Source of the DNA: a virus
Virus record (IMG/VR): IMGVR_UViG_3300037140_000174
Coordinates: 29,070 to 93,069 of that record
Direction: 5' to 3' (one strand)
DNA length: 64,000 bases
Shown: positions 42,209 to 62,747 of the stretch, one piece after another
Layout: the number at the start of each line of letters is the position of its first letter
How positions within the stretch are numbered: the first letter of the stretch is position 1
Made by a program: the position numbers and the translations under genes
The notes under the pieces: generated by a model
Seen by the model: the letters and a program-made list of their open reading frames with translations, nothing else
What the model was told of the DNA's origin: nothing
Database searches by the model: none

Positions 42209-43297
42209 TTACTCAGAAATTGTGTCAGCAGACTCAACATCCGCAGGCAGTTCCTCAACAAAGCGCGGTTGGAGCCGCTTGGTTCGCTTCCCTGAGTTTA
42301 GATGTTTGACCATCAAGCCATAGAGGATGTTTTGTGAAGCCCCGGCAGAGGACGTCAATGGTGAAATGCCGGGGTCGTTTAGAGGGAAGCTTGAAAGCTT
42401 CCGCCTAATATCAATGTTCACTGAGAACTTGTGACCATTGAAACTCCAAAAATCAAGATGATTGGAAAATATCCCAGCCATCATATAAAGGAAACCCGCG
42501 TTCAGATGAGGGGATAGTTCCCTATACTGAACTGTACGAATACCCCACACTTCGTCAATCACATCAAAGAATAATCTGACGTTATCACGAAGCTGACTGA
42601 GCGTGACTTTCTCAGCCAAGTTGTCCAGTTGGGTACCCAGTTCGCCGATGAGGATCGCTTTGCCAGCACCAACATGTCCGTGGAGCCGGGCGCTGATTTT
42701 CAGCACGTTTAGTGCTGTGATCAGCTTTCCGCGTTTCATGTTTTGATCCCATGAAACCTTGCCACCAAGGGCGAACGAAGTATTGCCTTCGTCCGTCATA
42801 TTGAAGATGGCGGCAATCGTCCGGTGGTTCTCCCGCATATTGCGCAGGAGAATGTTTGGCGAAACTTTCACCCGGTCTGAGTTGAGCACTCGAAACCGCT
42901 CACGTTCCCAGACCACGTTAGTTTTGAAATGAATAGCAGCTCCTAAAAACACAGGGGTTCCCGGATACATTGCCATGGCGTTCATGCAGGCGTTGACTCG
43001 CTGCTGGCCATCAATGATGTAGCAGGGGTCTTGAAGGAACCAGTCGTCTTTGACGCTACGCACTTTGTCACCCCGCATCCCAATTTCAATGTCGGGGAGA
43101 GATACACCGCCCTTCACGGCGAGTGTGAGCTTTGAAAGCTTGCCCAAGGGCAATGCCTCCCTTTGGTACTCATCGATCAAAAGGTGTCTGAGGCTTGCAG
43201 AATCAATTACCCCTCTGAGGATGACAGTGCCACCACGCAATGGGCTTTCTTGTAGAGCCCCGCTGGTTACTTTGATGGACTTCAAGTCCGTTGCCAT
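42209..43297 (-). CDS. DGQQR-domain protein (ParB/DndB-like)
   Basis: 362 residues. The key region IDEYQREAL, LPDIEIGMRGD, CYIIDGQQRVNA is the DGQHR/DUF262-type core, where DGQxR is the catalytic or nucleotide-binding motif. The rest (VWERERFRVLNSDRVKVSPN, LRNMRENHRTIAAIFN) resembles DGQHR proteins such as DndB, a regulator of phosphorothioate DNA modification. No other dnd genes are near. It may interfere with a host DNA-modification or defence system; inference only. Confidence 0.6.
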   Translation of the reverse strand: MATDLKSIKVTSGALQESPLRGGTVILRGVIDSASLRHLLIDEYQREALPLGKLSKLTLAVKGGVSLPDIEIGMRGDKVRSVKDDWFLQDPCYIIDGQQRVNACMNAMAMYPGTPVFLGAAIHFKTNVVWERERFRVLNSDRVKVSPNILLRNMRENHRTIAAIFNMTDEGNTSFALGGKVSWDQNMKRGKLITALNVLKISARLHGHVGAGKAILIGELGTQLDNLAEKVTLSQLRDNVRLFFDVIDEVWGIRTVQYRELSPHLNAGFLYMMAGIFSNHLDFWSFNGHKFSVNIDIRRKLSSFPLNDPGISPLTSSAGASQNILYGLMVKHLNSGKRTKRLQPRFVEELPADVESADTISE

Positions 43298-43333
43298 TTG
43301 GATCTCCTTTGGAGTTGGAATGGCGGTTGAGGA

Positions 43334-43705
43334 TTATTTGCTGATGACGACGTACTTTGTGCCTTTGCCAGTGGTTCCTTTCTTTTTTCTGAGGAATTTT
43401 GCTTTTTGCAGTTTGTAGGTGGAGTTTGATGTGCTCTTTGGGGAGCCTCCTAAAGCAACAACAATTTTTCTTATGTCAGCAGCGTTTACTTCCTTCAAGT
43501 GGTGTGTGGAAATATACGCGGCGACCTGTTCGTGCATAGCCGAACCATCGTTCGTTGTGGTGGCTTTTACTTTGCCACCAGAAGCTTTGGCCCCTTTGAC
43601 GGGGACGAAAGTTGGACGGCCCAACGTCATACCTTCTAAAGCCCAGGCCACTTTGCCGAGCTTTTTCTCCTCAACGTAAAGCTCTTCTATCTTGAAGATA
43701 CTCAT
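43334..43705 (-). CDS. Small predicted DNA-binding protein
   Basis: 123 residues. The N-terminus EELYVEEKKLGKVAWALEG is followed by a basic linker (KGAKASGGKVKATT) and a C-terminal domain: QVAAYISTHHLKEVNAADIR, KIVVALGGSPKSTSNSTYKL, FLRKKKGTTGKGTKYVVIS. The last domain has winged-helix features (helix, helix, basic beta wing). ATG is coupled by ATGA to the RMF-like gene. Confidence 0.58.
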   Translation of the reverse strand: MSIFKIEELYVEEKKLGKVAWALEGMTLGRPTFVPVKGAKASGGKVKATTTNDGSAMHEQVAAYISTHHLKEVNAADIRKIVVALGGSPKSTSNSTYKLQKAKFLRKKKGTTGKGTKYVVISK

Positions 43706-43872
43706 GATTCCTGTTTCTCCTTCTTGTTAAGTTCGTCCATGAATCCAGCACGCCATTGTTCCCAATTGTAGGAGTAGCGTGGGTGTGGATTAGATAAGAA
43801 AAGGGCGCGAGCTTTATGAGCTTCGAGCCCCTGTTCGTAGGCAACACTGCTTGTTGCTGGGTAATCCTCCAA
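43702..43872 (-). CDS. rmf-like: Ribosome modulation factor (RMF)-like protein
   Basis: 56 residues. AYEQGLEAHKARALFLSNPH, PRYSYNWEQWRAGFMDEL matches RMF: A-(F/Y)-xxG...A......NPY......W..GW. RMF binds 30S subunits and dimerises ribosomes into inactive 100S particles. Start is TTG six bases after AGGAGG, and the stop overlaps the next ATG (ATGA). A phage copy could lower host translation or protect ribosomes late in infection. Confidence 0.68.
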   Translation of the reverse strand: MEDYPATSSVAYEQGLEAHKARALFLSNPHPRYSYNWEQWRAGFMDELNKKEKQES

Positions 43873-43897
43873 TTTTCTCCTCCTGTTAGCTGGAACG

Positions 43898-43946
43898 TAA
43901 GTGTTCCCTGAGTGGCACCTGTGAAGATGCCACCTAGTAACACTTA
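43898..43946 (-). repeat. Nested stem-loop element, copy 1
   Basis: Leftward RNA: outer stem TAAGTGTT / AACACTTA, internal loop ACTAGG / CTCAGGG, inner 7-bp stem TGGCATC / GGTGCCA with loop TTCACA. The stop codon of the VWA gene (TAA) is the start of the outer stem; AACAGGAGGAGAAAA follows 20 bases later. Confidence 0.8.
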
Positions 43947-45110
43947 GAAGGCTGATTCTATTTTGATGACGTCGCCGAATGGCGGTACATATTGCGCGAG
44001 GGTGCTGTCAGTGGCGTAGGCAGCCCAAAGCGTTGGAATGCCCAAGTCCTCACCCCATGAAGTAGTCATCATGTCAGTGAGGTAAACGATGCACGACGCG
44101 TCACAGGCATGTTCCTTTATCCACCTGAACGAGTCATCAAAATCAGTGCCACCACCGCCTGCTGGGTTTGGGATTACCAAATCACCAGCATGGAATTCAT
44201 CCACACGTTCAACGGCAGCATCTGCGTAAATGATCGTGAGCTTGTCAGCGACACCCTGGTTGAGTGCCCCAGCCATTTCACTGATCATGGCTCGCATCAG
44301 GTCGTCTTGAATTGAGCCTGATGTGTCAATCACTCCGACCAAGTGATGTAACGCATCCGGGATGTGACCCGGCAAGATCAAGCCGGAGCTGATATAGCGC
44401 CGGTTTGGCCGTGACCAAGAATGGTCCTTGGTCATGCTTTGGTCGATGAATTGCTGTGTCAGGTCACGCCAAGATACTTTGGGTTCTTCAAGCTGTTGGG
44501 CTAGCCGTGCCAAGTGAGCAGGCAGCCTTCCAGCATTCTGTGATTTGGCTACGTTTATGGCAAGCCGAACGTTGGCTTCCCATTCAGCGGCCACTTCTTC
44601 AGGCACAGCCGCACCATCAATGTCGATGGAAATGCCGCACCCCCCGCCATCCAAATCACCCGGTGTCAGAGTGATTGTCATGGTAGGTATTTTCGGCAGT
44701 CGTTCGTAGATCTCTTCAGTGCTCATGCCGTCATATTTGGGATCATGCAGTCGTGACTTTGGCAGTACAAACGGCACCTTGAGCAGGTCGGAATTGATCA
44801 CGTAGTCACCAGCAAAGTTCCAACGAAGTGGATCCCGCTGGCCGCGCCTACTGAAGTGTTTGTAAGCGCAGTGTAATATCTCATGTGCAATGACACCAAC
44901 CAGTTTGTCCTCAGTAAGTTTGAGGACGAAGTCAGGCCAGTAGTACATATGCACACCATCAACTGCCATCGTTTCACAGTGTTGACCCCGGATGTTTTTA
45001 TCCTGGATCTCCAATGTTTCAAGGTGCAGCGCCAAGCATCCGAAAAATGGTTGGCTGACGATTAACTGCGATCTCGCCTTTACAATGGCTTTGTGAGCCT
45101 GCTTATTCAT
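43944..45110 (-). CDS. VWA-like protein with metallopeptidase domain
   Basis: 388 residues. VIAHEILHCAYKHFSRRG (HEILH at 76-80) is a zinc-binding motif as in DUF2201 metallopeptidase-like N-termini. The C-terminal half has a MIDAS-like VGVIDTSGSIQDD (261-267 core), then IIYADAAVERV, GGGGTDFDDSFRWI and CIVYLTDM. VWA proteins partner with MoxR ATPases, and a MoxR gene lies upstream in the same operon, together with a DUF3150 gene. The complex probably remodels or activates a protein target; target unknown. Confidence 0.85.
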   Translation of the reverse strand: MNKQAHKAIVKARSQLIVSQPFFGCLALHLETLEIQDKNIRGQHCETMAVDGVHMYYWPDFVLKLTEDKLVGVIAHEILHCAYKHFSRRGQRDPLRWNFAGDYVINSDLLKVPFVLPKSRLHDPKYDGMSTEEIYERLPKIPTMTITLTPGDLDGGGCGISIDIDGAAVPEEVAAEWEANVRLAINVAKSQNAGRLPAHLARLAQQLEEPKVSWRDLTQQFIDQSMTKDHSWSRPNRRYISSGLILPGHIPDALHHLVGVIDTSGSIQDDLMRAMISEMAGALNQGVADKLTIIYADAAVERVDEFHAGDLVIPNPAGGGGTDFDDSFRWIKEHACDASCIVYLTDMMTTSWGEDLGIPTLWAAYATDSTLAQYVPPFGDVIKIESAF

Positions 45111-45136
45111 TTTCTCCTCCTGTTTGGTTAAAGTAA

Positions 45137-45862
45137 CTAATTGAAATCTTTTGGTGGATTATCACTCAGCCACAAGATAAGTCTTTCAAGTTGCCATTTT
45201 TCTTCAGCGTCCCTAGCAGCGTCCCCAACAGCGGTCCTAGCAGCGGCCCTAGCAGCGGTCCTAGCAGCGTCCCCAACAGCGGTCCTAGCAGCGTCCCAAG
45301 CAGCGGCCCTAGCAGCGTCCCCAACAGCGGTCCTAGCAGCGGCCCTAGCAGCGGCCCTAGCAGCGGTCCTAGCAGCGGCCCTAGCAGCGGTCCTAGCAGC
45401 GCCCCCAACAGCGTCCCAAGCAGCGTCCCTAGCAGCGTCCCAAGCAGCGTCCTCAGCAGCGTCCCAAGCAGCGGCCCTATAAGCGGCCCCAGCAGCGTCC
45501 CCAACAGCGTCCCAAGCAGCGTCCCTAACAGCGTCCCAAGCAGCGTCCCCAGCAGCGTCCCAAGCAGCGTCCCTATAAAATTTTCTTGATATGGATATTG
45601 TATTCCTTGGTCTGTTATCTTTTGGTCTTTCTATTTCGAATAAATGAAGGACATGGGCAGCACAATCACAACCCCATAGTCCTATTCTTTTTTCTATTTG
45701 TTTGTCTTTTATTGCTAATTTTATGGCGGCTTCGTAAACTTCATTTAGTGAGAGTTGGAGGCTTTGTGCTTTAATCCAAGTTCCACCTCCAAAAAGGATG
45801 GACAACTCTACTAATTTTTCTGGTTTTGGATCAAGTTTTGAGAGTTGTGAGAATGTAATCAT
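45137..45862 (-). CDS. Ala-Trp-Asp repeat protein, Imm5-like
   Basis: 241 residues. Residues 1-95 form a helical domain (LNEVYEAAIKLAIKDKQIEK, CDCAAHVLHLFE). Residues about 98-220 repeat AAWDAARDAAWDAV-like units; later ones lose Trp to AARTAARAAA. The end returns to EKWQLERLILWLSDNPP. This layout recalls Imm-5-like putative immunity proteins seen in phages and bacteria. Repeats are hydrophobic-acidic and helical. Function unknown; interaction scaffold or immunity are guesses. Confidence 0.65.
   Translation of the reverse strand: MITFSQLSKLDPKPEKLVELSILFGGGTWIKAQSLQLSLNEVYEAAIKLAIKDKQIEKRIGLWGCDCAAHVLHLFEIERPKDNRPRNTISISRKFYRDAAWDAAGDAAWDAVRDAAWDAVGDAAGAAYRAAAWDAAEDAAWDAARDAAWDAVGGAARTAARAAARTAARAAARAAARTAVGDAARAAAWDAARTAVGDAARTAARAAARTAVGDAARDAEEKWQLERLILWLSDNPPKDFN
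45205..45578. repeat. Imperfect tandem coding repeats
   Basis: Units of 12 bases or multiples, with AGCAGCG followed by TCCC, GCCC or GTCC and TAA/TAG-free linkers, run for about 370 bases inside the Ala-Trp-Asp gene. They keep all six frames open and are probably prone to slippage and length change. Confidence 0.85.
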
Positions 45863-45875
45863 TTAGGTTATCCTT

Positions 45876-45924
45876 TAAGTGTACCCTGAGAAGCCTCATT
45901 ACTGAGGCTTCCTAGCTACACTCA
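45876..45924 (-). repeat. Nested stem-loop element, copy 2
   Basis: Leftward RNA: outer TGAGTGTA / TACACTTA, internal loop GCTAGG / CTCAGGG, inner 8-bp stem AAGCCTCA / TGAGGCTT with GTAA (GNRA) tetraloop. The TGA stop of the 114-aa gene opens the outer stem; AGGATAACCTAA precedes the next ATG, so this junction lacks the usual AGGAGG. Confidence 0.8.
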
Positions 45925-46266
45925 GCGGGTCTCAAACGTGATCCGCTCTTCATTATTCTCCTTCAGGTACTGCTCATAGGTTCGGTAGTCGGCTTCCTTG
46001 AAGGCTTTTTGATCGAAGCGGGTGGTGGGTATGAGTGAAAGCTTGGCTTTGAAGAGCTCACCAAGTATGAAGCCTTCCTTGCCCTTGCGTTGCTTCTTTA
46101 TGTCGGTTTTCACTGCATCATCAATGATTTCGCAATTTTTGGTGACCGCTTTTAGACGAGCAGCCACGTCAATTTGCTCTTCACGGGGCATTTTTGGAAG
46201 CAGTCTGACAAGCATTTCAAGAGCGTCAGATGCTTCTAGAAGTGAAGTTTTTACTGACTTCTGCAT
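45922..46266 (-). CDS. Hypothetical phage protein
   Basis: 114 residues, helical: LLEASDALEMLVRLLPKMPR, IDVAARLKAVTKNCEIIDDA. Then KGKEGFILGELFKAKLSLIP-TTRFD and YEQYLKENNEERITFET. The second half recalls short phage proteins with a GE-x-F-xA-x-L...R-x-D and a C-terminal TR-x-TFE-x-R. AACAGGAGGAGAAA precedes ATG. Function unknown. Confidence 0.55.
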   Translation of the reverse strand: MQKSVKTSLLEASDALEMLVRLLPKMPREEQIDVAARLKAVTKNCEIIDDAVKTDIKKQRKGKEGFILGELFKAKLSLIPTTRFDQKAFKEADYRTYEQYLKENNEERITFETR

Positions 46267-46351
46267 TTTCTCCTCCTGTTAGGTTTGGCCGGAACTGTTT
46301 TTCAGTTTCTGAGTTTGTGAAGTAGCAGGTCGCCGTTTTCAGTATCTTCAT
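46226..46351 (-). CDS. Possible 41-residue peptide
   Basis: ATG at 46351 follows AACAGGAGGAGAAA, the RBS used by verified-looking neighbours. The frame codes MKILKTATCYFTNSETEKQF and continues to SRSI, overlapping the 114-aa gene by 41 bases. Codons after LTGGEN simply read through the next RBS, so the functional part may be the first 25 residues, or this may be a leader peptide. Confidence 0.38.
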   Translation of the reverse strand: MKILKTATCYFTNSETEKQFRPNLTGGENAEVSKNFTSRSI

Positions 46352-46388
46352 TTTCTCCTCCTGTTTGCAAATCAGCAAAACTTAAATA

Positions 46389-46410
46389 GGTGGGAAGTTG
46401 CCTTCCCACC
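46389..46410 (-). repeat. Intercistronic GNRA hairpin
   Basis: Leftward GGTGGGAAG GCAA CTTCCCACC, nine base pairs with GCAA tetraloop, 11 bases after the MoxR stop. Same location as the nested elements but without the CTAGG/CTCAGG internal loop. Confidence 0.65.
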
Positions 46411-46420
46411 AAAACACACC

Positions 46421-47473
46421 CTAAAGTTGCAAGTCTTTGTTTCGATTCGCAAAATCGCAGAAGGCTTGCGTTTCTGTTAGGCTTGCGTCTCGTTTGCAAC
46501 CATCAAGCGTCAGGCAGATCTCGAACTCACGGCCAAAGTCAGGCCGTGAGGCATATTGCAGTATTTTCCCCAGGTTGTTCCTGGTGGCCCCACGAGCCAG
46601 CATTGCCACCAGCGCATATCGCGATGACGGCTGCTTGGGGATGGGGCAGGTTTTTGGAGCTTTCAAAACGTCCTCCAGTGAAGGGAGGTCCAGCGTTTTG
46701 ATAAAGTTGCTGAACTCGATGCCTGCACCTTCACCGACGCAAGCAATGGTGCTTTTTGTCAGCGTGATTGGGTCGGTGTGCAGTTTGCAGATGCGTGACA
46801 CCATCTCCCAAGTACGCGGGCAGGGGAAGGCTTTTTCAGCCGCCCTCGCCGTTGCTACTACTTTGTTATCCTTACCCTTTTTCTCGGTGTCAGTGGTGTC
46901 AAACATCGAGTGGATGAGGGTGGGCCGGAACTTGATGAAGCCCAGCACATACTCATGGTAGCCCTGTTGAAGTCCGTAGCTGTAGAATTCCTCAGGGCTT
47001 GGCTCCACTTCAAGCCAAGCGAACCGGCTGGCTAAAGCGGTTGAGATGGTTTGTGCGCCAGCCCGATGCTTCTGGTTGTTGCCAGCCGCACAGCGGTACC
47101 AACCGGGCGGGATGACATGTGGCCCAGCCCGGCCATTGAGTACGATCTGGTACATGGCGGATTGCATCGCTTTGCTGCAATCAGCGGCCTCATCAAACAG
47201 AATGATGCCACGTTCGCCGTCACGCTCAACTGTGGGCCAGAAGTCAGGCCGTGCCCACGTTGAAAGATCACCACTGACTTTTGGTAAACCACGAAGGTCG
47301 ATAGGGTCCATCTGTGCGAGCCGCACGTCAATGAGTTTGATCTTTTCCTCATTGGCAATTTGCTGCCACGCGTCGGACTTGCCCACTCCAGGCGGCCCCT
47401 CCATGAATACGGGGATGCCCGCACGCATGAAGACTTTGCATAGGGCTTTGGCACTTCCTATTGTTTCGGTCAT
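46421..47473 (-). CDS. MoxR-like AAA ATPase
   Basis: 350 residues. Walker A GPPGVGKS (26-33), RLAQMDPIDLRGLP, Walker B IILFDEAAD (91-96 core), sensor AAGNNQ, ALASRFAWLEVEPSPEEF and PRTWEMVSRI. This is the MoxR subfamily. Together with a DUF3150 and a VWA protein it forms a three-gene set also known from other phages and mobile elements. The pair is thought to act as chaperones or metal-insertion machines. ATG follows AACAGGAGGAGAAA. Confidence 0.88.
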   Translation of the reverse strand: MTETIGSAKALCKVFMRAGIPVFMEGPPGVGKSDAWQQIANEEKIKLIDVRLAQMDPIDLRGLPKVSGDLSTWARPDFWPTVERDGERGIILFDEAADCSKAMQSAMYQIVLNGRAGPHVIPPGWYRCAAGNNQKHRAGAQTISTALASRFAWLEVEPSPEEFYSYGLQQGYHEYVLGFIKFRPTLIHSMFDTTDTEKKGKDNKVVATARAAEKAFPCPRTWEMVSRICKLHTDPITLTKSTIACVGEGAGIEFSNFIKTLDLPSLEDVLKAPKTCPIPKQPSSRYALVAMLARGATRNNLGKILQYASRPDFGREFEICLTLDGCKRDASLTETQAFCDFANRNKDLQL

Positions 47474-47538
47474 TTTCTCCTCCTGTTTGAAGCAAAGTGC
47501 TTCTCACAGCCACCCTAAAAGGTGGCTGGAAGCAACAC

Positions 47539-47778
47539 TTAGAGATCAAGTGAGCCGTCACCCACAGCTTCAAGTGGATCATAATCAGGGTCAATTTCGC
47601 AAGGTTGCCCCATGCCGTAAGTAGATGCGTAAACGTCGGCTTGTTGACGTTTGAGTTTGTCAGGCTCACGCCGGATGTAATCGTTGACGGCTTCAAAACG
47701 CCACGCATCCTTTCCGTAGCTTCCTTCCCACCCAAGATTGATTACATCTTCAGGTGAGTTGACTTGTTTTCTTTCCAT
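47539..47778 (-). CDS. Small hypothetical protein
   Basis: 79 residues from ATG at 47778 behind AACAGGAGGAGAACT. DVINLGWEGSYGKDAWRFEA, VNDYIRREPDKLKRQQADVY, acidic C-terminus (EIDPDYDPLEAVGDGSLDL). Between the HExxH protein and MoxR genes in the operon, so possibly a substrate or adaptor. Unknown family. Confidence 0.6.
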   Translation of the reverse strand: MERKQVNSPEDVINLGWEGSYGKDAWRFEAVNDYIRREPDKLKRQQADVYASTYGMGQPCEIDPDYDPLEAVGDGSLDL

Positions 47779-47802
47779 AGTTCTCCTCCTGTTTGTGCTA
47801 CA

Positions 47803-47847
47803 CAGTAGCGTTGAGCGCACCACTGAGGATGCGCTCCGTCGCTGCTG
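47803..47847 (-). repeat. Nested stem-loop element, degenerate copy
   Basis: Outer stem CAGTAGCG / CGCTGCTG (one G-T pair), inner stem GAGCGCA / TGCGCTC with a 10-base loop. Same architecture and position (just after the HExxH gene stop, before AACAGGAGGAGAA) but the internal loop lacks CTAGG/CTCAGG. Confidence 0.6.
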
Positions 47848-47848
47848 T

Positions 47849-48565
47849 TCAGTCGAAGTCATCAATGCTGTTGAACTGTTCAAACAGTTCGTTCAGTTCG
47901 CCGCCTCGTTTGGCTTCCAGGAACTGTTCCGTCATTGTGGTGATTCTTTTGTTGTAGTCATCAGTGCCCTGCTGGATGTATGCTTCCAGCGAAGGAGGAT
48001 CGATGTCCTCCTTATAGGTTTTCTCGAGCCATTCACTTTGATTGGCCGGAAGTTGCGCCAGCACCTTCAGCATTAAGGGTCCCTGCCCCTTGTACGCTTT
48101 GCGTTCGTAGGGCATTAGTTCGCTGTCCAAGCCAGCCATCCGTGCCAGCTTGGCAATTTTGTTGTTGATCGGCTTGCCGGCGTAGGACATTTTGTCCTTT
48201 TCACTGTCGTGGACGAGGAGCCCGTGAGCAAGGTCACTCACATGGATCATCTCATGGCAAAACGACAGCATGATTTTTGCCGGGTTTTCGAGAGCCATTG
48301 TGACGTAGAATTTGTCAGTTTTGATGCTGTCGGTTTTGCCCTGGACGGTTGGCTCACCAGGGAAGGACTTGACGAAGCTGAGGCACAGGGATCGTTCATC
48401 GGTAGCTATGTCAAGCTCTTTGGTGATGATGCCGAAGGCACTGTTGATGGTATTGAGCCAAATGCCGTTGGGCTCGTAGCTGTGTAACTGTTCGCTGAGA
48501 ACGGCTTCCAAGGCTCCAATCAAGCCCAGCGAAGTTGCTGATGGCTTGCAAAATTCGAGCTTCAT
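47849..48565 (-). CDS. SprT-like metalloprotease candidate (HExxH)
   Basis: 238 residues from ATG at 48565. KIMLSFCHEMIHVSDLAHG has HEMIH (104-108) and a further His at 114, as in zinc proteases of SprT-like type. The C-terminus is helical and acidic (ELNELFEQFNSIDDFD). In an operon with MoxR, DUF3150 and a second HExxH protein (VWA), it may cut or be regulated by that complex. Catalysis is inferred only from the motif. Confidence 0.7.
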   Translation of the reverse strand: MKLEFCKPSATSLGLIGALEAVLSEQLHSYEPNGIWLNTINSAFGIITKELDIATDERSLCLSFVKSFPGEPTVQGKTDSIKTDKFYVTMALENPAKIMLSFCHEMIHVSDLAHGLLVHDSEKDKMSYAGKPINNKIAKLARMAGLDSELMPYERKAYKGQGPLMLKVLAQLPANQSEWLEKTYKEDIDPPSLEAYIQQGTDDYNKRITTMTEQFLEAKRGGELNELFEQFNSIDDFD

Positions 48566-48603
48566 AGTTTTCTCCTCCTGTTTGTGGGAATGATGTTGCT
48601 GGT

Positions 48604-48646
48604 AACAACATCGTAGGAGAGCACCGAAATGCTCTTCGTCGTTGTT
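48604..48646 (-). repeat. Nested stem-loop element, degenerate copy
   Basis: Outer stem AACAAC / GTTGTT, inner stem AGAGCA / TGCTCT with CCGAAA loop. A second small hairpin GATGTTG / CAACATC overlaps its right side. It begins two bases after the stop of the 71-aa gene. Confidence 0.55.
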
Positions 48647-48647
48647 G

Positions 48648-48863
48648 TCAGGCAACATCGTCACCAACGGTGACGATGATAACCAGAATCAGAGCGACGC
48701 AGCCTGAAGCTGCGGCCTCAAGTTCGTGAATACCAACGGAGACGCTGGCAAGAACTAAAATATTGCCAAGTTGTTCTGCACGGTGAAAGAGCATCTGGTG
48801 CGTTTTACACAGGGCTATCCATTTGGCAATCAGTTCGCGGAGGTGTGGAACCTTGATCCGCAT
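48648..48863 (-). CDS. Small membrane protein
   Basis: 71 residues from ATG at 48863, with AAGGGAA upstream. Amphipathic N-terminus (RIKVPHLRELIAKWIALCKT) then LGNILVLASVSVG and SGCVALILVIIVTVGDDVA, one or two membrane helices. Coupled in the operon after the 40-aa membrane peptide. Unknown. Confidence 0.55.
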   Translation of the reverse strand: MRIKVPHLRELIAKWIALCKTHQMLFHRAEQLGNILVLASVSVGIHELEAAASGCVALILVIIVTVGDDVA

Positions 48864-48900
48864 GTCATTTCCCTTTTGAGGTTGGGGTGAGGTTCCCGGC

Positions 48901-49023
48901 CTACCACCAATCGAGGTTGTTGTAGGTGGCGTTTTTGTCGGGGTATTTCCAGTTGAGGTAACCAGCCCCAACGAGCGGAACTACCAAGAGGGCCAGCATT
49001 CCCAGCCCCTGTAAAAGGTTCAT
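48901..49023 (-). CDS. 40-residue membrane protein
   Basis: MNLLQGLGMLALLVVPLVGA followed by GYLNWKYPDKNATYNNLDWW. One membrane helix with a short aromatic, probably periplasmic tail. ATG lies four bases after AACAGGAGGAGAAC, the operon's standard RBS. Too short for routine gene callers. Confidence 0.65.
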   Translation of the reverse strand: MNLLQGLGMLALLVVPLVGAGYLNWKYPDKNATYNNLDWW

Positions 49024-49044
49024 GTTCTCCTCCTGTTGATGCAT

Positions 49045-49089
49045 GATTGCATCCTGAGTAGCACTCGTAAGTGCTACCTAGATGAAATC
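49045..49089 (-). repeat. Nested stem-loop element, copy 3
   Basis: Leftward RNA: outer GATTtCAT / ATGcAATC (one mismatch), internal loop CTAGG / CTCAGG, inner stem TAGCACT / AGTGCTA with TACG tetraloop. TGA of the DoxX gene lies at the edge; AACAGGAGGAGAAC and ATG follow. Confidence 0.78.
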
Positions 49090-49555
49090 AAAAGCCCAAA
49101 GCCCACATTAGGAAGTGGTCAATGCTGAGCGGCCCCGAACCGGCTGCTATGACCGGCAGGAGCAACAACATCAACAGAACTTCAGGCAAGTAGAGAACGC
49201 AATCAGCGTAATCTACTTCGTCAACTGGCCCCCACGCGGGGATGCGTTTGAGCCCGTCAGTGCAGGTAGCTACTGCAAGGATACCCATGAGCCCAATGGC
49301 TGCCAGTACAGTCAGGAAGCCAAAGGCAACGCCTAGGCCGCCGAATAGCTCAACACCAGGCACGAACCATTGCATGTACTTGATGCAAGGAATGCCACAG
49401 CTTTTCAGCGTCGTGACCAGCGCAGCGTGACGCGCCGGAACGAACATTTTATGGTAGCCGCTTGAGATGAAGAAAAAGCCAATCAGCACCCGGTTGAGTG
49501 TCCAGATGAGTTGGTAGCCACCGATACCCGATAGACACACATCAATTAATTTCAT
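49088..49555 (-). CDS. DoxX-family membrane protein
   Basis: 155 residues from ATG at 49555. LIWTLNRVLIGFFFISSGYHK-MFVPAR, PCIKYMQWFVPGVELFGGLG and further helices (LTVLAAIGLMGILAVATC, LPEVLLMLLLLPVIA) give the four-helix DoxX/DoxD layout with R...FxxSGxxK and PxxE/ELxGG. DoxX proteins sit in the inner membrane and act in redox or sulfur metabolism in bacteria. Rare in phages; role here unknown. Confidence 0.7.
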   Translation of the reverse strand: MKLIDVCLSGIGGYQLIWTLNRVLIGFFFISSGYHKMFVPARHAALVTTLKSCGIPCIKYMQWFVPGVELFGGLGVAFGFLTVLAAIGLMGILAVATCTDGLKRIPAWGPVDEVDYADCVLYLPEVLLMLLLLPVIAAGSGPLSIDHFLMWALGF

Positions 49556-49577
49556 TTTTCTCCTCCTGTTTAGTGCT

Positions 49578-49624
49578 TGGCGCACCCTGAGTGGGAGGCC
49601 GAAGCCTCCCACCTAGCTACGCCA
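49578..49624 (-). repeat. Nested stem-loop element, copy 4
   Basis: Leftward RNA: outer TGGCG / CGCCA, internal loop TAGCTAGG / CTCAGGGTG, inner 8-bp stem TGGGAGGC / GCCTCCCA closed by a UUCG tetraloop. The TAG stop of the DUF3150-like gene is inside the internal loop; AACAGGAGGAGAAAA follows. Confidence 0.82.
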
Positions 49625-50492
49625 TGAAGGATTTGACTTTCTTCAGGATTGCTTCAGCGTCACGGGCAGTGGCACTGCGAACCTTTGGGTCCACCCGCAA
49701 CACTTCGGGGCTGTGCTCAAGCAGCTTGGCTTCCAACTGCTGCTGGAGGTCAACCAGCCGTTGATCCTCCATGATGTTCAGGGAGGGCAGTAAGTCAGCC
49801 AGGGTCTTGATGTTGAACACCAACGAATCACGGAAGGTGTTTTTGGCGTTTTCGCCGCCAACGGCCGGCTCATAGGAGCGCAGCTTTTCCACCATTTTGC
49901 CGGTGGCGTCTGCGATCCGCAGGAACACGTCGTTGGTGGCCTGCTTCAACCGCTCTTCGGTGCGCCGCTCAATGTCCTTGGCAATTGCCTTGACTGATGC
50001 ATCCGTGAGCTTGGCACGGAAGTCACCAGCTTCGGCAATGGCTGAAATTTCACTGTCGAGATAGAAGCGGTTCTTGAGCGTGCTGGGCTCAGGGTAATCC
50101 TCAACATTGAACATGGTTTTCAGCCGGTCCCGCGCTTCGTCAATCACTGACTGGAAGTTGGTGATGAACTCATCGCGGGATGCCTCAAACTTGAGACGAG
50201 CGGTACGCATGGATTGCGTGTAGTGAGCATGGCCAGCAGTTGCCAGGATGCGTGTGCCGTCATCAGTCCATGGCAGCGTGAGCATCTTGTGGGTGGCTGA
50301 AGCCATTGAAGCGGCTCCACGAACCTTGGTCAGGAACTTAGGTGCTACGAGTGATTTGGTGTAGCGCCCTGATTCCTTGCGATCTGAATTGTGGCGCTCA
50401 GCCACTTCTTCAGTCACTTCACGATCAACGAGTTGGCCCGTCCAAAGTCCGATATGCACTGTGGCCAACATGGCACGTTCTGATAGTTTCAT
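49617..50492 (-). CDS. DUF3150-like protein
   Basis: 291 residues from ATG at 50492, behind AACAGGAGGAGAAA. TVHIGLWTGQLVDREVTEEV, YTKSLVAPKFLTKVRGAASM, ATHKMLTLPWTDDGTRILAT, FITNFQSVIDEARDRLKTMF. The order L.I..W.G, then K..I.P..L..., then T.PW.D.G.R.L and a long helical end fits DUF3150. That family is typically encoded beside MoxR ATPase and VWA/CobT-like proteins, both present here. Function unknown. Confidence 0.72.
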   Translation of the reverse strand: MKLSERAMLATVHIGLWTGQLVDREVTEEVAERHNSDRKESGRYTKSLVAPKFLTKVRGAASMASATHKMLTLPWTDDGTRILATAGHAHYTQSMRTARLKFEASRDEFITNFQSVIDEARDRLKTMFNVEDYPEPSTLKNRFYLDSEISAIAEAGDFRAKLTDASVKAIAKDIERRTEERLKQATNDVFLRIADATGKMVEKLRSYEPAVGGENAKNTFRDSLVFNIKTLADLLPSLNIMEDQRLVDLQQQLEAKLLEHSPEVLRVDPKVRSATARDAEAILKKVKSFMA

Positions 50493-50521
50493 TTTCTCCT
50501 CCTGTTTGGCAGATGAAGCAA

Positions 50522-50567
50522 AGTGCTTCATCTAGGGCACCAATTAAGATGCCCTAGGGGCTGCACT
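50522..50567 (-). repeat. Nested stem-loop element, degenerate copy
   Basis: Outer AGTGC / GCACT, inner TAGGGCA / TGCCCTA with a 10-base loop. CTAGG is present in the flank on one side and CCTAG on the other, so the internal loop differs from the consensus. Located one base after the 196-aa gene stop. Confidence 0.6.
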
Positions 50568-50568
50568 C

Positions 50569-51159
50569 TTAGGCGTCGTCAACTTCCACGACCATTGGTT
50601 CGTGAATCTCACCTTCAAGTGGTTCCCAATCAACTTGGCCCTTACGGGCTTTTTCGAGAGCCACTGCCTCAGCATCGTCGGTATCATGAGCTTGAAGCGT
50701 CACCCTGGTTACGACAGTTTGCCTTGCACTGAGTCGGACCTGAAACTCACGCAGCCTTTCTGGTGTTTCAAATACACCACCAACCTCAACCATCTTTCTG
50801 ATGGCAGCCGCCGCTTCTTTTGGCGTGGCATCACCAATGATAGAATCTTGATAACTTTTGGCCGCCCAATACCCATGAAAGAGGAATCTTGATTCTCCAG
50901 GTGACAATTCAAGCCATCTCCTGGCTGTACCTTGGATGTCATAGTGACGTAGCCAGTTGACACGGGCTGCTTTGAATGGGATGGCAACTACTGCGGCCCA
51001 TCCAGCTACACAGCCGGTGGTTCCACACTCACCGGCTCGGTCCCATTTGTTGATGTCTTCATGAGTAGCTTTGTCAGCCAGCCAAGCCCGCATGTAGAAC
51101 TTGTCGTCGGGCAGCGTGTCGAGAAAGCTGGCAAGTGCCAGCATGTTCGCTTTATTCAT
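50569..51159 (-). CDS. Conserved phage hypothetical protein
   Basis: 196 residues. MLALASFLDTLPDDKFYMRA, GECGTTGCVAGWAAVVAIPF, ARRWLELSPGESRFLF, TPKEAAAAIRKMVEVGG. The CG-TxGCxAGWA motif with a later LxLxxxExxxLF is recurrent in phage proteins of unknown function, perhaps metal or redox related through the two Cys. C-terminal 60 residues acidic. RBS AACAGGAGGAGAA. Confidence 0.6.
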   Translation of the reverse strand: MNKANMLALASFLDTLPDDKFYMRAWLADKATHEDINKWDRAGECGTTGCVAGWAAVVAIPFKAARVNWLRHYDIQGTARRWLELSPGESRFLFHGYWAAKSYQDSIIGDATPKEAAAAIRKMVEVGGVFETPERLREFQVRLSARQTVVTRVTLQAHDTDDAEAVALEKARKGQVDWEPLEGEIHEPMVVEVDDA

Positions 51160-51200
51160 ATTCTCCTCCTGTTTTGTGCCTTTAGGGTTAAAGACACGTC

Positions 51201-51297
51201 AAAGCCCGGCAGGGAAACCGGGCTTTAGCTTGCCTTTTTAAATAGCCTGTAACCGGCTAGCGGTGCCCTAGGGTTAGTTTTTTGGGCTTAACCCTAG
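51201..51297. repeat. Two intergenic hairpins after the 177-aa gene
   Basis: AAAGCCCGG / CCGGGCTTT (51201-51226) and CTAGGGTTA / TAACCCTAG (51268-51297). The second is nested in ACCGG / CCGGT. They occupy the same position as the nested elements further along, but the conserved internal loop is missing. Confidence 0.5.
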
Positions 51298-51335
51298 CCC
51301 GGTAGCCTCATTTTGAAAGCTTACCAATGATCGCC

Positions 51336-51869
51336 CTAGCGGCAGTGGTCTAGAAGATACAGTTCAACGGCAACCTGCCATCGTTCAGGTGTTTGGTATT
51401 TCCATACCCCAGGGGCTATGCATCTCAGGCTAACTGTTGGGCTGCCTGAGATGCTTGTTAACTGCTTCCCGCGTTCGGGATGAAGCCCGAACCAACGAGC
51501 TACTTTGCCGTCATCAAGGTAAATTGTTCTGTGGGTGTTCATTTTGCTGCCCATCTCAGGGCAAACGCTTAAAAGTGTATCTAGTATCTTCAAGTATCGG
51601 TAATGTAGCTTTGTAGGGTCGGCTTTTATTTTTTGCCTGACACATTCCAATGCAATTGGCACTGGAACAAAAGGCAGTGTGGCTGGATGAATGTTCATCT
51701 CTTCATACTTCTTGGTCATGGTATTCAGGCAACCACAGATAACGATTTTGTCAGTGGTTGACAGTTTATCCCAAGCTATGATCATGTTTGGTGATTGGGA
51801 TGTTATCTTTACTGGGTACGAAGTGCCACCAAAACGCTTTCTTTTTCTTATTACCCACTCAATTTTCAT
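51336..51869 (-). CDS. Hypothetical protein, first gene of the accessory operon
   Basis: 177 residues from ATG at 51869 behind AACAGGAGGAGAAC. Contains WVIRKRKRFGGTSYPVKITS, KIVICGCLNTMTKKYEEMNI, RTIYLDDGKVARWFGLHPER, ERWQVAVELYLLD. Mixed alpha/beta, basic N-terminus. No family recognised. Confidence 0.55.
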   Translation of the reverse strand: MKIEWVIRKRKRFGGTSYPVKITSQSPNMIIAWDKLSTTDKIVICGCLNTMTKKYEEMNIHPATLPFVPVPIALECVRQKIKADPTKLHYRYLKILDTLLSVCPEMGSKMNTHRTIYLDDGKVARWFGLHPERGKQLTSISGSPTVSLRCIAPGVWKYQTPERWQVAVELYLLDHCR

Positions 51870-51890
51870 GTTCTCCTCCTGTTGGTGCCT

Positions 51891-51931
51891 ATTGCACCCT
51901 GACAAGCATTGAGATGCTTGCTAGCTACAAT
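51891..51931 (-). repeat. Nested stem-loop element, copy 5
   Basis: Leftward RNA: outer ATTG / CAAT, internal loop TAGCTAG / TCAGGGTG, inner stem CAAGCAT / ATGCTTG, CTCA loop. It lies before the first gene of the operon, so here it is in the 5' leader rather than between two genes. Confidence 0.72.
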
Positions 51932-52936
51932 TGGCGATGAGGGGCGGTCAGTGACTTTGGATCACCAACCGCCCTCACCAATAATTCAGGAGAAGAGGAG
52001 AAATAACGCCTTATGCTGCGGTGTTTTTTGGGTTCGACTGAAGCTGCTTTGCGAGTTGGGGTAGTGGCGTTGGTGACGCTGAGGGATGCCTAAGTATAAC
52101 TAAATTGCCCTTTAGGGGTTTCGCCCCGATTGTGGAGGCCGGGTATTTTTACGTATAGGCCATTTCAAGCGGCACCATGCTTTGTGGGGTTGTGGATTTT
52201 GCTAGCTGGCTTACAGGAATGCCAAAAACTCACGCGGCGCAGTATTTGCGGCGTGACTACGGGGGGCGTGGCATTACTGAAACGAGGACTTGAAACCCCG
52301 CATCAGGCGCTATTCTTTACTACTGTTCACCGCCTTAGTGACGTGGGGCTTTTGGATTGCTATCACTTGCCCCGTCATATCGCGGGTGCGCTTACGTAAC
52401 GGTGTAAGCGATACCTGCAACGCGGGTACAATGTGACCATCCTTTTTGGCTGATTTGTGCCAAAGCTTTAGCTTCATGCTTTGCACACCCTGCGGTGCTT
52501 TATAGTGCACCGCATTTGTAGCCATTGCGCTTGCCACAGCCCGGCTATACTGGCCTACAGCGGCTTTGCCGGGCCTATCACTACGCGGCAACGCATTGAC
52601 CGGCAGGGCCGTATTGCTGGCCCTACGCTTGCCCTTGCTATGCCCGTATTGTGGCGCACGCATTCTTTTAGCCCAAAGTTGTAATAGCACGTCAATTGCA
52701 GTAACCGTTAACCGGCTTTTTCACAGCGTTTGAAGTGACCCCAGTTTTTTCGTAGGCCCCGCATTTTGCCGCATGGGCTGGCTACACGTACAGCGTGGCC
52801 AATTCAAACCGGGGCACGAATCACAAATAGCTTTTGGCCCCGGTAACGGGCACACTGGGCAATTGTGCGCCACCAATACCGAAGTCACAACGAGTATCTA
52901 GGAATACTTCCTAATGAGTTATCAACAGTTCTTTCG
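51932..52936. other. One-kilobase region without convincing genes
   Basis: Contains a nested hairpin GGGCGGT-CA-GTGA / TCAC-CA-ACCGCCC (51942-51974), AGGGCC / GGCCCT near 52607, repeated AAAACTC/GGGGC patches, GTTAAC near 52706 and a mild TTTTTC after CCGGC. One weak leftward ORF is listed separately. It may hold the promoter or leader of the accessory operon or an origin; no DnaA boxes or iterons were identified by eye. Confidence 0.45.
52310..52663 (-). CDS. Doubtful basic ORF
   Basis: 117 residues from ATG at 52663, or only the last 55 from ATG at 52477. Basic throughout (GHSKGKRRASNTALPVNALP, KLKLWHKSAKKDGHIVPALQ). No strong RBS and no family recognised; it lies in a hairpin-rich region and may not be translated. 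Confidence 0.3.
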   Translation of the reverse strand: MRAPQYGHSKGKRRASNTALPVNALPRSDRPGKAAVGQYSRAVASAMATNAVHYKAPQGVQSMKLKLWHKSAKKDGHIVPALQVSLTPLRKRTRDMTGQVIAIQKPHVTKAVNSSKE

Positions 52937-53974: not shown

Positions 53975-54211
53975 ATGCCAAGAGGTAAAGCTGCACAAGT
54001 CATGGGGATATGGCTAAAGAGGGAAGGAGATCAAATGGTAGTCACGGCTGAAGACATTTATGGCCGTGACGTAGAATTAATCAGAACTCATGTTGAGGGG
54101 CCAATCAGCCATAATATCAGCGAACACGGTATTCAACGCCTCTTTGACAAAGCATATTGGGATGCGTGCAACAAGAAGGTTGAAGAATACAACGCAAGGA
54201 AGCAAAAATGA
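53975..54211 (+). CDS. Small hypothetical protein
   Basis: 78 residues from ATG at 53975, eight bases after AGGAG. MGIWLKREGDQMVVTAEDIY, GISHN-like ISHNISEHGIQRLFDKAYW and a basic end. It is the first gene of a rightward set of small genes. Unrecognised. Confidence 0.58.
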   Translation: MPRGKAAQVMGIWLKREGDQMVVTAEDIYGRDVELIRTHVEGPISHNISEHGIQRLFDKAYWDACNKKVEEYNARKQK

Positions 54212-54348
54212 GCTATTCAATTATCCCACTGTTGATCAGGCTGGCTCTATTTGCAGGGGGTATCATGTTCCTAATCATGCAGCAGCCAATCCCAGCAATA
54301 ATCACGCTTCTGGCAACACTTCTAATATATAAAGGAGAAGAAAGATGA
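54208..54348 (+). CDS. Small membrane protein
   Basis: 46 residues: MSYSIIPLLIRLALFAGGIM, FLIMQQPIPAIITLLATLLI, YKGEER. Two hydrophobic helices. AAGGAAG before ATG; ATGA overlaps the next gene and its start overlaps the previous stop. This tight coupling supports translation. Confidence 0.62.
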   Translation: MSYSIIPLLIRLALFAGGIMFLIMQQPIPAIITLLATLLIYKGEER

Positions 54349-54515
54349 GATTGGAGCTAGGAATTATGTTGAAACCTGCACTAGAGGTTAATTGGTTTGA
54401 GGCAACAACAGCAGAAGCTGCAATGCTTGCAATCAAGAATCAGTTGGAAGCAGCCCAGGTGATTTGGCCAGAACTAAGGGTGTTTGAAATCAAGGAGAAG
54501 AAAGATGATTTGTGA
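54345..54515 (+). CDS. Small hypothetical protein
   Basis: 56 residues: MRLELGIMLKPALEVNWFEA, TTAEAAMLAIKNQLEAAQVI, EIKEKKDDL. AAAGGAGAAGAAAG precedes ATG. Helical; overlaps both neighbours by a few bases. Unrecognised. Confidence 0.58.
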   Translation: MRLELGIMLKPALEVNWFEATTAEAAMLAIKNQLEAAQVIWPELRVFEIKEKKDDL

Positions 54516-54942
54516 GAAGTGCAAAGGTACGAATTGGGTAACTGTTAAAGATCCTCCTTGGTCACGCAACATCAAGAAGCAGCCATGCCCGGATTGCACG
54601 GGTGGGTTAGCGCATTGCTGTGATGGGATACAAGAACAACCAGAACTGGTAATCGCGCTGATGGAGTTATTTGGGCAGGGTAAAGTAAGTGAAGATACAG
54701 AAGCAGCGATTAGACTTAAGTGGGTAGAAGATTGGTTCCAAGCGCACAGGAAGTATAGGGAAGCAAGTGAGGAGTATAATAAAAGACTTGAATTGGTTAG
54801 AGCTGAAAGGGAACTGGGGAATTGGACGATGAATTTACATCAGGAATATAGGAAGCTGAATGAAGCACAATCCAACGCACTAAAAGCAGACAACATATTG
54901 TATGAGAAGCTTCTTGTAGTTGATCCATTATCAGGAGAATAA
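54505..54942 (+). CDS. Zinc-finger protein, DnaJ-type CxxCxG
   Basis: 145 residues from ATG at 54505. ICEKCKGTNWV and CPDCTGGLAHCC form a CxxCxG...CxxCxGG pair as in DnaJ-like zinc domains. The rest is a long charged helix (EASEEYNKRLELVRAERELG). Possibly a phage adaptor protein; role unknown. AAGGAGAAGAAAG precedes ATG. Confidence 0.6.
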   Translation: MICEKCKGTNWVTVKDPPWSRNIKKQPCPDCTGGLAHCCDGIQEQPELVIALMELFGQGKVSEDTEAAIRLKWVEDWFQAHRKYREASEEYNKRLELVRAERELGNWTMNLHQEYRKLNEAQSNALKADNILYEKLLVVDPLSGE

Positions 54943-54945
54943 GCA

Positions 54946-55104
54946 ATGAACCAAGAGGAAAGACTTTGTCCTGTATGTGAGATAAGAACTAAGGAACCAG
55001 GGAATTATATGTGTGAGGATTGCTATAGATCAATTCAATGGGACGAAGCTAAGATTCACGAATGGGGTATTGAAAGGGTAGGAACTGTGAAGAAGCGTAG
55101 ATGA
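54946..55104 (+). CDS. 52-residue zinc-ribbon protein
   Basis: MNQEERLCPVCEIRTKEPGN, YMCEDCYRSIQWDEAKIHEW, then basic KKRR at the end. CPVC and CEDC form a treble-clef-like knuckle. AGGAG seven bases before ATG. Fits the small-gene set; role unknown. Confidence 0.6.
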   Translation: MNQEERLCPVCEIRTKEPGNYMCEDCYRSIQWDEAKIHEWGIERVGTVKKRR

Positions 55105-55159
55105 GGCTATGTTTTCATATATTAAGGTATATGAATGGTTCTTGATATCGTAGTTCCTA

Positions 55160-55184
55160 ATATCGTATCCTAAGGATACGATAT
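55160..55184. promoter_or_regulatory. Perfect hairpin/palindrome
   Basis: ATATCGTATCC-TAA-GGATACGATAT, 11 perfect base pairs. ATATCGTA occurs again just upstream (CTTGATATCGTAG near 55144). No U-run follows, so an operator or mRNA-stabilising stem is more likely than a terminator. Confidence 0.5.
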
Positions 55185-55215
55185 TATGGCTGGATGAGGC
55201 AGGATTAGCCTATAT

Positions 55216-55383
55216 ATGAGCAGGATTAGGCCCCATATGAGCACGACGACATCAGCGACGATTTACCAGACGACACCGACTAAGACGACGATGGAATGTA
55301 TCCTACGAAGCTTCTTATGCATCCTAGGAAGCTTCTTCATCCTGTTCTTTGTCTTCGTGGGCTTGACAAACTCAATGGACTAG
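55216..55383 (+). CDS. Small membrane protein
   Basis: 55 residues from ATG at 55216 or 48 from 55237. Thr-rich N-terminus (MSTTTSATIYQTTPTKTTME) then one membrane helix (ILRSFLCILGSFFILFFVFV). It ends 33 bases before the HTH gene. RBS weak. Resembles the 33-aa membrane ORF at 55.9 kb in hydrophobic core. Confidence 0.42.
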   Translation: MSRIRPHMSTTTSATIYQTTPTKTTMECILRSFLCILGSFFILFFVFVGLTNSMD

Positions 55384-55416
55384 ACAAATTAAATTATTTG
55401 TGTTGAACATGTTTTT

Positions 55417-55899
55417 ATGAAAAATGCAAGGGATGCAGCTTTTATCGTGAGATTCATGCGTGGTCAAACTTTAGCTGAGATTGGGACGTCTTATGGGGTG
55501 ACACGTGAACGTGTTCGTCAGATTTTGTCAAGGCATGGGATTACACGCAATCAAGGTGGGGCTTCATTAAAAAAGACTAAGAAGCAAGAACTTAAGAACC
55601 AATTGAAGAACCAAAAGACGAAGATGAATAAGGGGTGCTCTTGGGATCAATACAAAGGGCTCAGAAGTGATAGGATCACAAGGTTCTTCAACCAACAGAA
55701 GAATAATTCTAAGCGGCGTGGGATAAAATGGAAGCTTACCTTGTGGCAATGGTGGTCTATCTGGGAAGAATCAGAGCATTGGGATGAACGCGGACGTGGG
55801 AAGCTAAAATATTGCATGTGCAGGAAGGGGGATGTTGGAGCTTATGAAGTTGGCAATGTGTTTATTGAAACTAACCTCTTTAATCTTCAAAGCAGATGA
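55417..55899 (+). CDS. Helix-turn-helix protein with HNH-like C-terminal domain
   Basis: 160 residues. N-terminal RGQTLAEIGTSYGVTRERVR and QILSRHGI resembles sigma region 4/HTH. A basic linker follows. The C-terminus NSKRRGIKWKLTLWQWWSIW, YCMCRKGDVGAYEVGNVFIE is a recurrent phage domain (RGI-x-W...LT...WW.iW...Y.M.R..D.G.Y...NV.I) probably related to homing nucleases. A mobile DNA-binding gene is inferred; nuclease residues not certain. Confidence 0.6.
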   Translation: MKNARDAAFIVRFMRGQTLAEIGTSYGVTRERVRQILSRHGITRNQGGASLKKTKKQELKNQLKNQKTKMNKGCSWDQYKGLRSDRITRFFNQQKNNSKRRGIKWKLTLWQWWSIWEESEHWDERGRGKLKYCMCRKGDVGAYEVGNVFIETNLFNLQSR

Positions 55900-55947
55900 G
55901 GTTGGATGAGGCTTCGCCTAGATGAGGCGAAGATAAAGAACAGTGAG

Positions 55948-56049
55948 ATGAGCCAGATGAGGGAGCGGGATGAGCCCTGTTTATTATTCTTAGGATTTAT
56001 CTTCTGGTTCGTATCCCTCTTAGTGTTCTTCATCTTCGTGTGGTTCTAG
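55948..56049 (+). CDS. 33-residue membrane peptide
   Basis: MSQMRERDEPCLLFLGFIFW, FVSLLVFFIFVWF. Charged N-terminus, then one strong membrane helix. No clear RBS beyond GTGAG. Listed because charge bias and hydrophobic pattern look selected and a similar peptide lies at 55.2 kb. Confidence 0.38.
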   Translation: MSQMRERDEPCLLFLGFIFWFVSLLVFFIFVWF

Positions 56050-62724: not shown

Positions 62725-62747
62725 GCCTTCGGCTCGGCTCGACCGCA

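What the first reader, a model, noticed from the sequence alone, without database searches (positions are those of the whole stretch)
43884..51935. Repeated nested stem-loop element between genes of one operon
Five places (43898-43946, 45876-45924, 49045-49089, 49578-49624, 51891-51931) can fold, in the sense of transcription, into: outer stem, internal loop (GUAG)CUAG(G) opposite CUCAGG(GU), inner 6-8-bp stem capped in three cases by UUCG, UACG or GNRA tetraloops. Stem sequences differ at each copy while pairing and internal loop are kept, which is the signature of selected RNA structure. The stop codon of the upstream gene often lies in the element, and most copies precede an almost identical RBS (AACAGGAGGAGAAA). 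Degenerate copies sit at 47803, 48604 and 50522. This could be an RNA processing site, protein-binding element or translation insulator. I do not recognise it from known families.
Basis: partly seen in the sequence, partly recalled or inferred. Interest (0 to 1): 0.85.

Follow-up and report, generated by a model that had tools for sequence, protein, structure and literature searches.

The report
Two-state RNA hairpins between phage genes
Nearly every gap between genes in one operon of this virus, and of one distant relative, encodes an RNA hairpin kept in shape while its letters change, placed just before the ribosome-binding site and able to fold in two competing ways; it probably marks where the long messenger RNA is cut or separated into gene-sized pieces, but nothing has been tested in the laboratory.

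Summary
Five minus-strand copies with a CUAGG/CUCAGG(G) internal loop exist. In an alignment with one copy from a distant relative (IMG/VR 3300018063_000194), 97.3% of pair cells are paired and 14 of 19 pairs change on both sides (0/500 shuffles). The invariant G·U pair and one-sided orientation point to RNA. No Rfam family matches.

This gives A–[9–11-bp inner hairpin]–B–C–(A)ACAGGAGGAG–start. A:B and B:C overlap and exclude each other, with similar predicted energies in 17 of 18 elements. The layout occurs at nearly all junctions of this operon and of the relative's operon, including 'degenerate' copies lacking the CUAGG motif; B:C hairpins of ≥5 bp occur at 12/19 starts versus 5.4% in shuffles (P ~2e-11). 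I found no true copies in the pattern scans of bacterial genomes or other viral contigs.

Best explanation: an intercistronic mRNA boundary element with T7 RNase III-site geometry. Cleavage would leave a 3'-terminal hairpin upstream and a 5'-terminal hairpin plus exposed ribosome-binding site downstream. Cleavage is inferred. The main rival is a ribosome-operated switch or insulator without cleavage.

The parts
43896..43948 (-). Element E1 (after the VWA gene): A arm, CUAGG/CUCAGG motif, inner stem 43911-43934, B arm. Overlapping B:C hairpin GGAAC-ACTTAC-GTTCC at 43892-43907; SD AGGAGG 43879-43884
   Evidence: CM R1 67.2 bits; covariation; linker/B:C table
45874..45926 (-). Element E2: CUAGG/CUCAGG hairpin with GUAA loop; no canonical SD and no clear B:C hairpin
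   Evidence: CM R1 68.3 bits; fold
49042..49092 (-). Element E3: CUAGG/CUCAGG hairpin with UACG loop. B:C hairpin GATGCAATCATGCATC at 49038-49053; SD 49029-49034
   Evidence: CM R1 57.3 bits
49575..49627 (-). Element E4: CUAGG/CUCAGG hairpin with UUCG loop. B:C hairpin GGTGC-GCCAA-GCACT at 49572-49586; SD 49562-49567
   Evidence: CM R1 64.9 bits
51887..51935 (-). Element E5 in the operon leader: CUAGC/GUCAGGG hairpin. B:C hairpin GGTGC-AATAG-GCACC at 51884-51898; SD 51875-51880
   Evidence: CM R1 52.3 bits
51176..51240 (-). Same A-inner-B-C architecture, other internal loop: inner 51200-51227; B:C GTGTCTTTA-ACCC-TAAAGGCAC 51176-51197
50512..50566 (-). Same architecture ('degenerate copy at 50522'): inner 50533-50556; B:C GATGAAGCA-CTT-TGCTTCATC 50512-50532
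48592..48651 (-). Same architecture ('degenerate copy at 48604'): inner 48618-48635; B:C GATGTTG..CAACATC 48592-48612
47797..47850 (-). Same architecture ('degenerate copy at 47803'): inner 47813-47836; B:C GCTAC-TGT-GTAGC 47797-47809
47489..47542 (-).
46364..46425 (-). Weaker case: inner hairpin 46389-46410 and B:C TTTGC..GCAAA 46364-46379, 9-nt linker, A:B doubtful
42209..51869 (-). Operon carrying the elements (DoxX protein, N4-type ATPase, VWA/DUF2201 metallopeptidase, DUF3150-like protein, unknowns); most starts have (A)ACAGGAGGAGAA

Best explanation
The elements are intercistronic mRNA boundary devices with two alternative folds. In fold I the A and B arms close a ~20-bp hairpin whose ~10-bp upper stem ends in a conserved internal loop. 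This is the geometry of phage T7 RNase III processing sites. A host double-strand endonuclease (RNase III) would cut the 3' side of the internal loop, near CUCAG^GG. The upstream mRNA then ends in the inner hairpin. The downstream mRNA starts with B, which is now free to pair with C and forms a 5'-terminal hairpin a few bases before an exposed SD. Both new ends would be protected and each gene would get the same standard leader. Shown: structure, covariation, the overlapping third strand, spacing, position between stop codon and SD, near-equal predicted energies. Inferred: cleavage, the enzyme, and stabilisation.
For: Covariation with different letters at each copy. A blind extra copy was found by the model in L007 (E 2.7e-6). 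B:C hairpins of >=5 Watson-Crick bp directly 5' of the SD occur at 12/19 starts against 5.4% in dinucleotide shuffles, P ~2e-11, and in 0/12, 0/2, 0/7 and 0/3 AGGAGG starts of T7, TM4, ZHS and SSP002. Inner stem is 9-11 bp in 15/17, and the linker from inner stem to B:C hairpin is 3 nt in 10/17 and 2-4 nt in 14/17, so the B:C hairpin starts where an RNase III-type cut would fall. T7 R0.5, R1.1 and R4.7 upper stems are also 10 bp. T7 R1.1 has an asymmetric 4/5-nt internal loop cut to 47+13 nt (PMC6121014), and its computed fold shows a 7-bp hairpin just downstream. The two folds differ by less than 4 kcal/mol in 17/18.
Against: No transcript data. The record has no RNase III gene (PF14622), so a host enzyme is needed. 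If the host is alphaproteobacterial (GcrA homolog), note that S. meliloti RNase III wants longer duplexes than the E. coli enzyme (PMC6121014). T7 R-sites do not consistently show the B:C arrangement. E2 lacks the B:C hairpin and standard SD. A nearly invariant internal-loop sequence in seven copies is more than RNase III needs.
Confidence: 0.42

Rival explanations
1. Ribosome-operated switch or insulator without cleavage. A ribosome stopping at the upstream stop codon covers A, which frees B to pair with C; a ribosome loading on the SD covers C, which lets A:B form. The element would couple or insulate translation of neighbouring genes and keep the SD free of upstream pairing.
For: An upstream stop codon lies in or just before the A arm in 15-16 of 18 elements, and the two folds are nearly isoenergetic. 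B:C ends 1-8 nt from the SD in most cases. The SD is almost identical at all genes.
Against: The SD appears open in both folds, so the expected effect on initiation is modest. This does not explain why the inner stem stays at 9-11 bp, nor the nearly invariant internal-loop letters in one subset.
Confidence: 0.3
2. Binding site of a phage or host RNA-binding protein that recognises the CUAGG/CUCAGG internal loop, for example an autogenous translational repressor acting on several genes.
For: The internal loop is nearly invariant in seven copies across two phages while the stems vary.
Against: Other junctions of the same operons keep the geometry and B:C hairpin but not this loop. No candidate protein was identified.
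Confidence: 0.13
3. Transcription element: nascent-RNA antitermination or antipausing, like HK022 put RNAs, which also form two adjacent stem-loops and need no phage protein.
For: Fold II is two tandem hairpins with a fixed short linker; put RNAs are ~70 nt with two stem-loops (PMC9378689).
Against: put occurs at two places downstream of early promoters, not before each gene. Model R1 finds nothing in HK022 27.0-40.8 kb, although that stretch may not contain both put sites. The tight tie to stop codons and SDs is unexplained.
Confidence: 0.08
4. DNA-level element (mobile palindrome or recombination site) that has spread between genes.
For: Many copies at gene boundaries; short palindromes are common mobile or recombination sites (general knowledge).
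Against: Stem letters differ at every copy with compensatory changes, an invariant G-U pair is kept, all copies are in transcription sense and sit between stop codon and SD.
Confidence: 0.03

Closest known systems
Phage T7 RNase III processing sites (R0.3 to R18.5)
   Same: Intercistronic hairpins in polycistronic phage mRNA; ~10-bp upper stem, asymmetric internal loop, lower stem. R1.1 also has a computed hairpin just 3' of the loop.
   Different: Most T7 sites share upper-stem letters (AAGGUC..GGCCUU) and have a different loop; here stems change freely. No consistent overlapping B:C hairpin or common SD in T7. Model R1 finds nothing in T7.
Start-associated sequences (SAS/ESAS) of cluster K mycobacteriophages and cluster EF Microbacterium phages
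   Same: Repeated module before many starts: a highly conserved SD-containing sequence plus an upstream inverted repeat in the intergenic gap (PMC3203893, PMC7302621).
   Different: The SAS/ESAS repeats are conserved in sequence, and the authors found little support for an mRNA hairpin; here the sequence varies and the pairing is kept. Model R1 and the B:C test are negative in TM4.
HK022 put RNA
   Same: Two adjacent stem-loops in a phage transcript (PMC9378689).
   Different: Two sites per genome, near promoters; no SD or stop-codon association; no R1 match in the part of HK022 tested.
RiboJ-type synthetic insulators (from own knowledge)
   Same: Proposed outcome is alike: a cleaved transcript whose new 5' end is a hairpin followed by an exposed SD.
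   Different: RiboJ uses a self-cleaving ribozyme; here there is no ribozyme match in Rfam and no conserved catalytic core across elements.

Membership tests
T7-type RNase III processing site | Intercistronic hairpin with ~10-bp upper stem and asymmetric internal loop | tested here: met
   Inner stems 9-11 bp in 15/17; N/GG or 0/1 bulge plus A x C mismatch; T7 R0.5/R1.1/R4.7 10 bp
T7-type RNase III processing site | Cleavage by RNase III in the internal loop | not testable with these tools
   Needs in vitro cleavage or 5'-end mapping
T7-type RNase III processing site | Sequence or structure match of the same family | tested here: not met
   CM R1 gives no hit in the whole T7 genome
SAS/ESAS | Sequence-conserved 13-bp SAS and 17-bp inverted repeats | tested here: not met
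   Stems differ at each copy with compensatory changes; no R1 match or B:C hairpin in TM4
SAS/ESAS | Located immediately upstream of translation starts of many genes | tested here: met
Any Rfam release 15 family (including self-cleaving ribozymes) | Score above gathering threshold | tested here: not met
   0 matches in the window; permissive hits are incoherent
HK022 put RNA | Two stem-loops in the nascent transcript | tested here: met
   Fold II has two tandem hairpins with a 2-4 nt linker in 14/17
HK022 put RNA | Binding to RNA polymerase beta' zinc-binding domain, antitermination | not testable with these tools
   Needs transcription assays; R1 has no match in HK022 27.0-40.8 kb
Intrinsic transcription terminator | G+C-rich hairpin followed by a U run | tested here: not met
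   Both hairpins are followed by (A)ACAGGAGGAGAA, no U run

The most novel reading that the evidence does not exclude
A dedicated, modular, bistable RNA boundary element has been installed at almost every gene junction of an operon. Its two folds are selected to be nearly isoenergetic, so that terminating and initiating ribosomes, or a cut, set the state and give each gene an equal, insulated leader. That would be a natural counterpart of engineered ribozyme-plus-hairpin insulators, made without a ribozyme.
Probability: 0.3. Interest if true: 0.75.

Novelty: new variant of a known kind. Interest (0 to 1): 0.57.

Why it matters
Repeated intercistronic hairpins in phages are known, but a module with a covarying interrupted hairpin whose 3' arm is shared with a second hairpin at the ribosome-binding site, kept over a whole operon in two distant phages, was not found in Rfam or in the papers searched. 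If it processes or insulates each gene, it shows how a phage equalises and protects expression along a long mRNA, and it offers a compact insulator design. The two-fold prediction can be tested directly with simple reporters and RNase III.

Tried and rejected
Rfam: none. IMG/VR pattern scans with CTAGG..CTCAGG..SD and B:C..SD variants: only L007 is real; the rest lack the paired stems. L134 (a 465-kb contig) has one two-hairpin-plus-SD leader without the CUAGG motif. Genome-contig scan: 34 pattern hits, none with a convincing inner stem (best 5 bp). Protein searches for further relatives of the operon genes in IMG/VR gave only L007, L011 and L012; L011 and L012 have no AGGAGG starts. The ATPase/DUF3150/VWA cassette in Planktothrix phage Pag-Yong1 lacks the hairpins. 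A strict three-strand test requiring full overlap of A, B and C was weak (5 of 19 against a mean of 1.97 and a maximum of 5 in shuffles), because B:C often uses the GG of the internal loop and only part of the A-pairing strand; the separate B:C test is significant. The R1 hit at record position 19.75 kb (E 0.006-0.016) looks like a chance hairpin. Phage-encoded RNase III: none. Self-cleaving ribozyme: no conserved core across elements.
Full report
Setting. The window is part of a 93,069-base IMG/VR virus record. The elements lie in a minus-strand operon at about 51.9 to 42.2 kb. It encodes a DoxX protein, an N4-type ATPase (phrog_1297), a VWA/DUF2201 metallopeptidase-like protein, a protein related to a DUF3150 gene of cyanophages, and unknown proteins. 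Most starts carry (A)ACAGGAGGAGAA. No near DNA relative was found among named phages. The DNA polymerase is about 32% identical to those of Edwardsiella phage ZHS and SSP002-like Vibrio phages.

Four copies match CTAGG..CTCAGG exactly and one is CTAGC..TCAGG. A pattern scan of IMG/VR found one real relative, L007 (IMGVR_UViG_3300018063_000194, 28 kb), with TGAGTGCA ACTAGG ATGGCCCA TTAC TGGGCCAT CTCAGGG TGCATTC followed by ACAGGAGGAG. L007 shares two operon proteins at 28-40% identity. In the six-sequence alignment 97.3% of pair cells are standard pairs, 14 of 19 pairs change on both sides, and none of 500 shuffles or six slides comes near. The covariance model then found a seventh copy it was not trained on, L007:7475-7529, at E 2.7e-6. 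All six training copies keep a G-U pair next to an A x C mismatch, and all are in transcription sense, which points to RNA rather than DNA.

The larger architecture. Folding the leader of each gene shows that most junctions, not five, carry a two-tier hairpin. It also shows that the 3' outer strand B can pair instead with a segment C just before the SD. Directly 5' of the SD, hairpins of at least 5 Watson-Crick pairs occur at 12 of 19 starts in the two operons, against 5.4% in dinucleotide shuffles (P about 2e-11). In other sequence they are less common: 22 of 173 AGGAGG starts in background loci, many of which were chosen by related patterns, and none in T7, TM4, ZHS or SSP002. The layout is uniform: inner stem 9-11 bp in 15 of 17; linker 3 nt in 10 of 17 and 2-4 nt in 14 of 17; then the B:C hairpin; then usually 1-8 nt to AGGAGG. 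An upstream stop codon lies in or just before arm A in 15-16 of 18. CUAGG/CUCAGG is thus one frequent internal-loop type in a broader class. A stricter test asking for complete overlap of A, B and C was weak, because B:C often begins in the GG of the internal loop and shares only part of B with A.

Two folds. With B:C forced or C kept single-stranded, the predicted energies differ by less than 4 kcal/mol in 17 of 18 elements (median about -1.6 in favour of B:C). This rests on nearest-neighbour energies and hand-chosen B and C segments, and no null for the balance was computed.

Mechanism. The geometry matches T7 RNase III sites: T7 R0.5, R1.1 and R4.7 have 10-bp upper stems, and R1.1 has an asymmetric 4/5-nt internal loop cut into 47 and 13 nt (PMC6121014). 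A cut at the matching place here would fall where the B:C hairpin begins. The upstream RNA would end in the inner hairpin, and the downstream RNA would begin with a hairpin followed by an open SD. This explains the fixed inner-stem length, the short linker and the shared B strand together. Cleavage is inferred. The record has no RNase III gene. A GcrA homolog hints at an alphaproteobacterial host, whose RNase III may prefer longer duplexes (PMC6121014). The main rival is a switch set by terminating and initiating ribosomes, or a passive insulator. Protein-binding and antitermination readings are less likely.

Known systems. No Rfam family matches. SAS/ESAS modules of cluster K mycobacteriophages are alike in position, but they are conserved in sequence and their authors saw little support for mRNA hairpins (PMC3203893). 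HK022 put RNA has two stem-loops but only two sites (PMC9378689). The new points are the shared third strand, free stem drift, and use at nearly every junction of an operon.

Reach. Outside these two phages no true copy was found in IMG/VR or in 84,980 species genomes with exact patterns. Patterns only catch the CUAGG/CUCAGG subtype or close B:C forms, so relatives with other loops could be missed. The ATPase/DUF3150/VWA cassette occurs in other phages without the hairpins, so the element belongs to this phage lineage and not to those genes.

Noticed in passing
window 45137-45862 (-): Gene with roughly 30 copies of a 12-base repeat encoding A/D-rich tetrapeptides (DAARAAARTA...); Pfam finds an Imm5-like putative immunity domain.
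   Followed up: partly
window 32864-35332 (-): DnaB-type helicase gene interrupted by an intein with a LAGLIDADG endonuclease domain.
   Followed up: no
window 12552-13199 (+): Homolog of GcrA, an alphaproteobacterial cell-cycle regulator; suggests the host group.
   Followed up: no
window 62000-64000: G+C content jumps to 0.67 against about 0.47 in the rest; the ORFs at 61603-62724 and 62748-63821 match no Pfam or PHROG family.
   Followed up: partly
window 54000-56000: Strong positive GC skew (+0.26) near where transcription direction changes; possible origin or control region.
   Followed up: no
window 51920-51980 (-): A second long hairpin (GAGGGCGGT...GACCGCCCCTC) directly upstream of element E5 in the operon leader.
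   Followed up: no
L134 (IMGVR_UViG_3300034072_000926, 465 kb), gene leader at about 1.1 kb: One leader with two tandem hairpins (CCTGAA..TTCAGG, GTGC..GCAC) before AGGAGG in a jumbo-sized contig; possible independent case of fold II.
   Followed up: no
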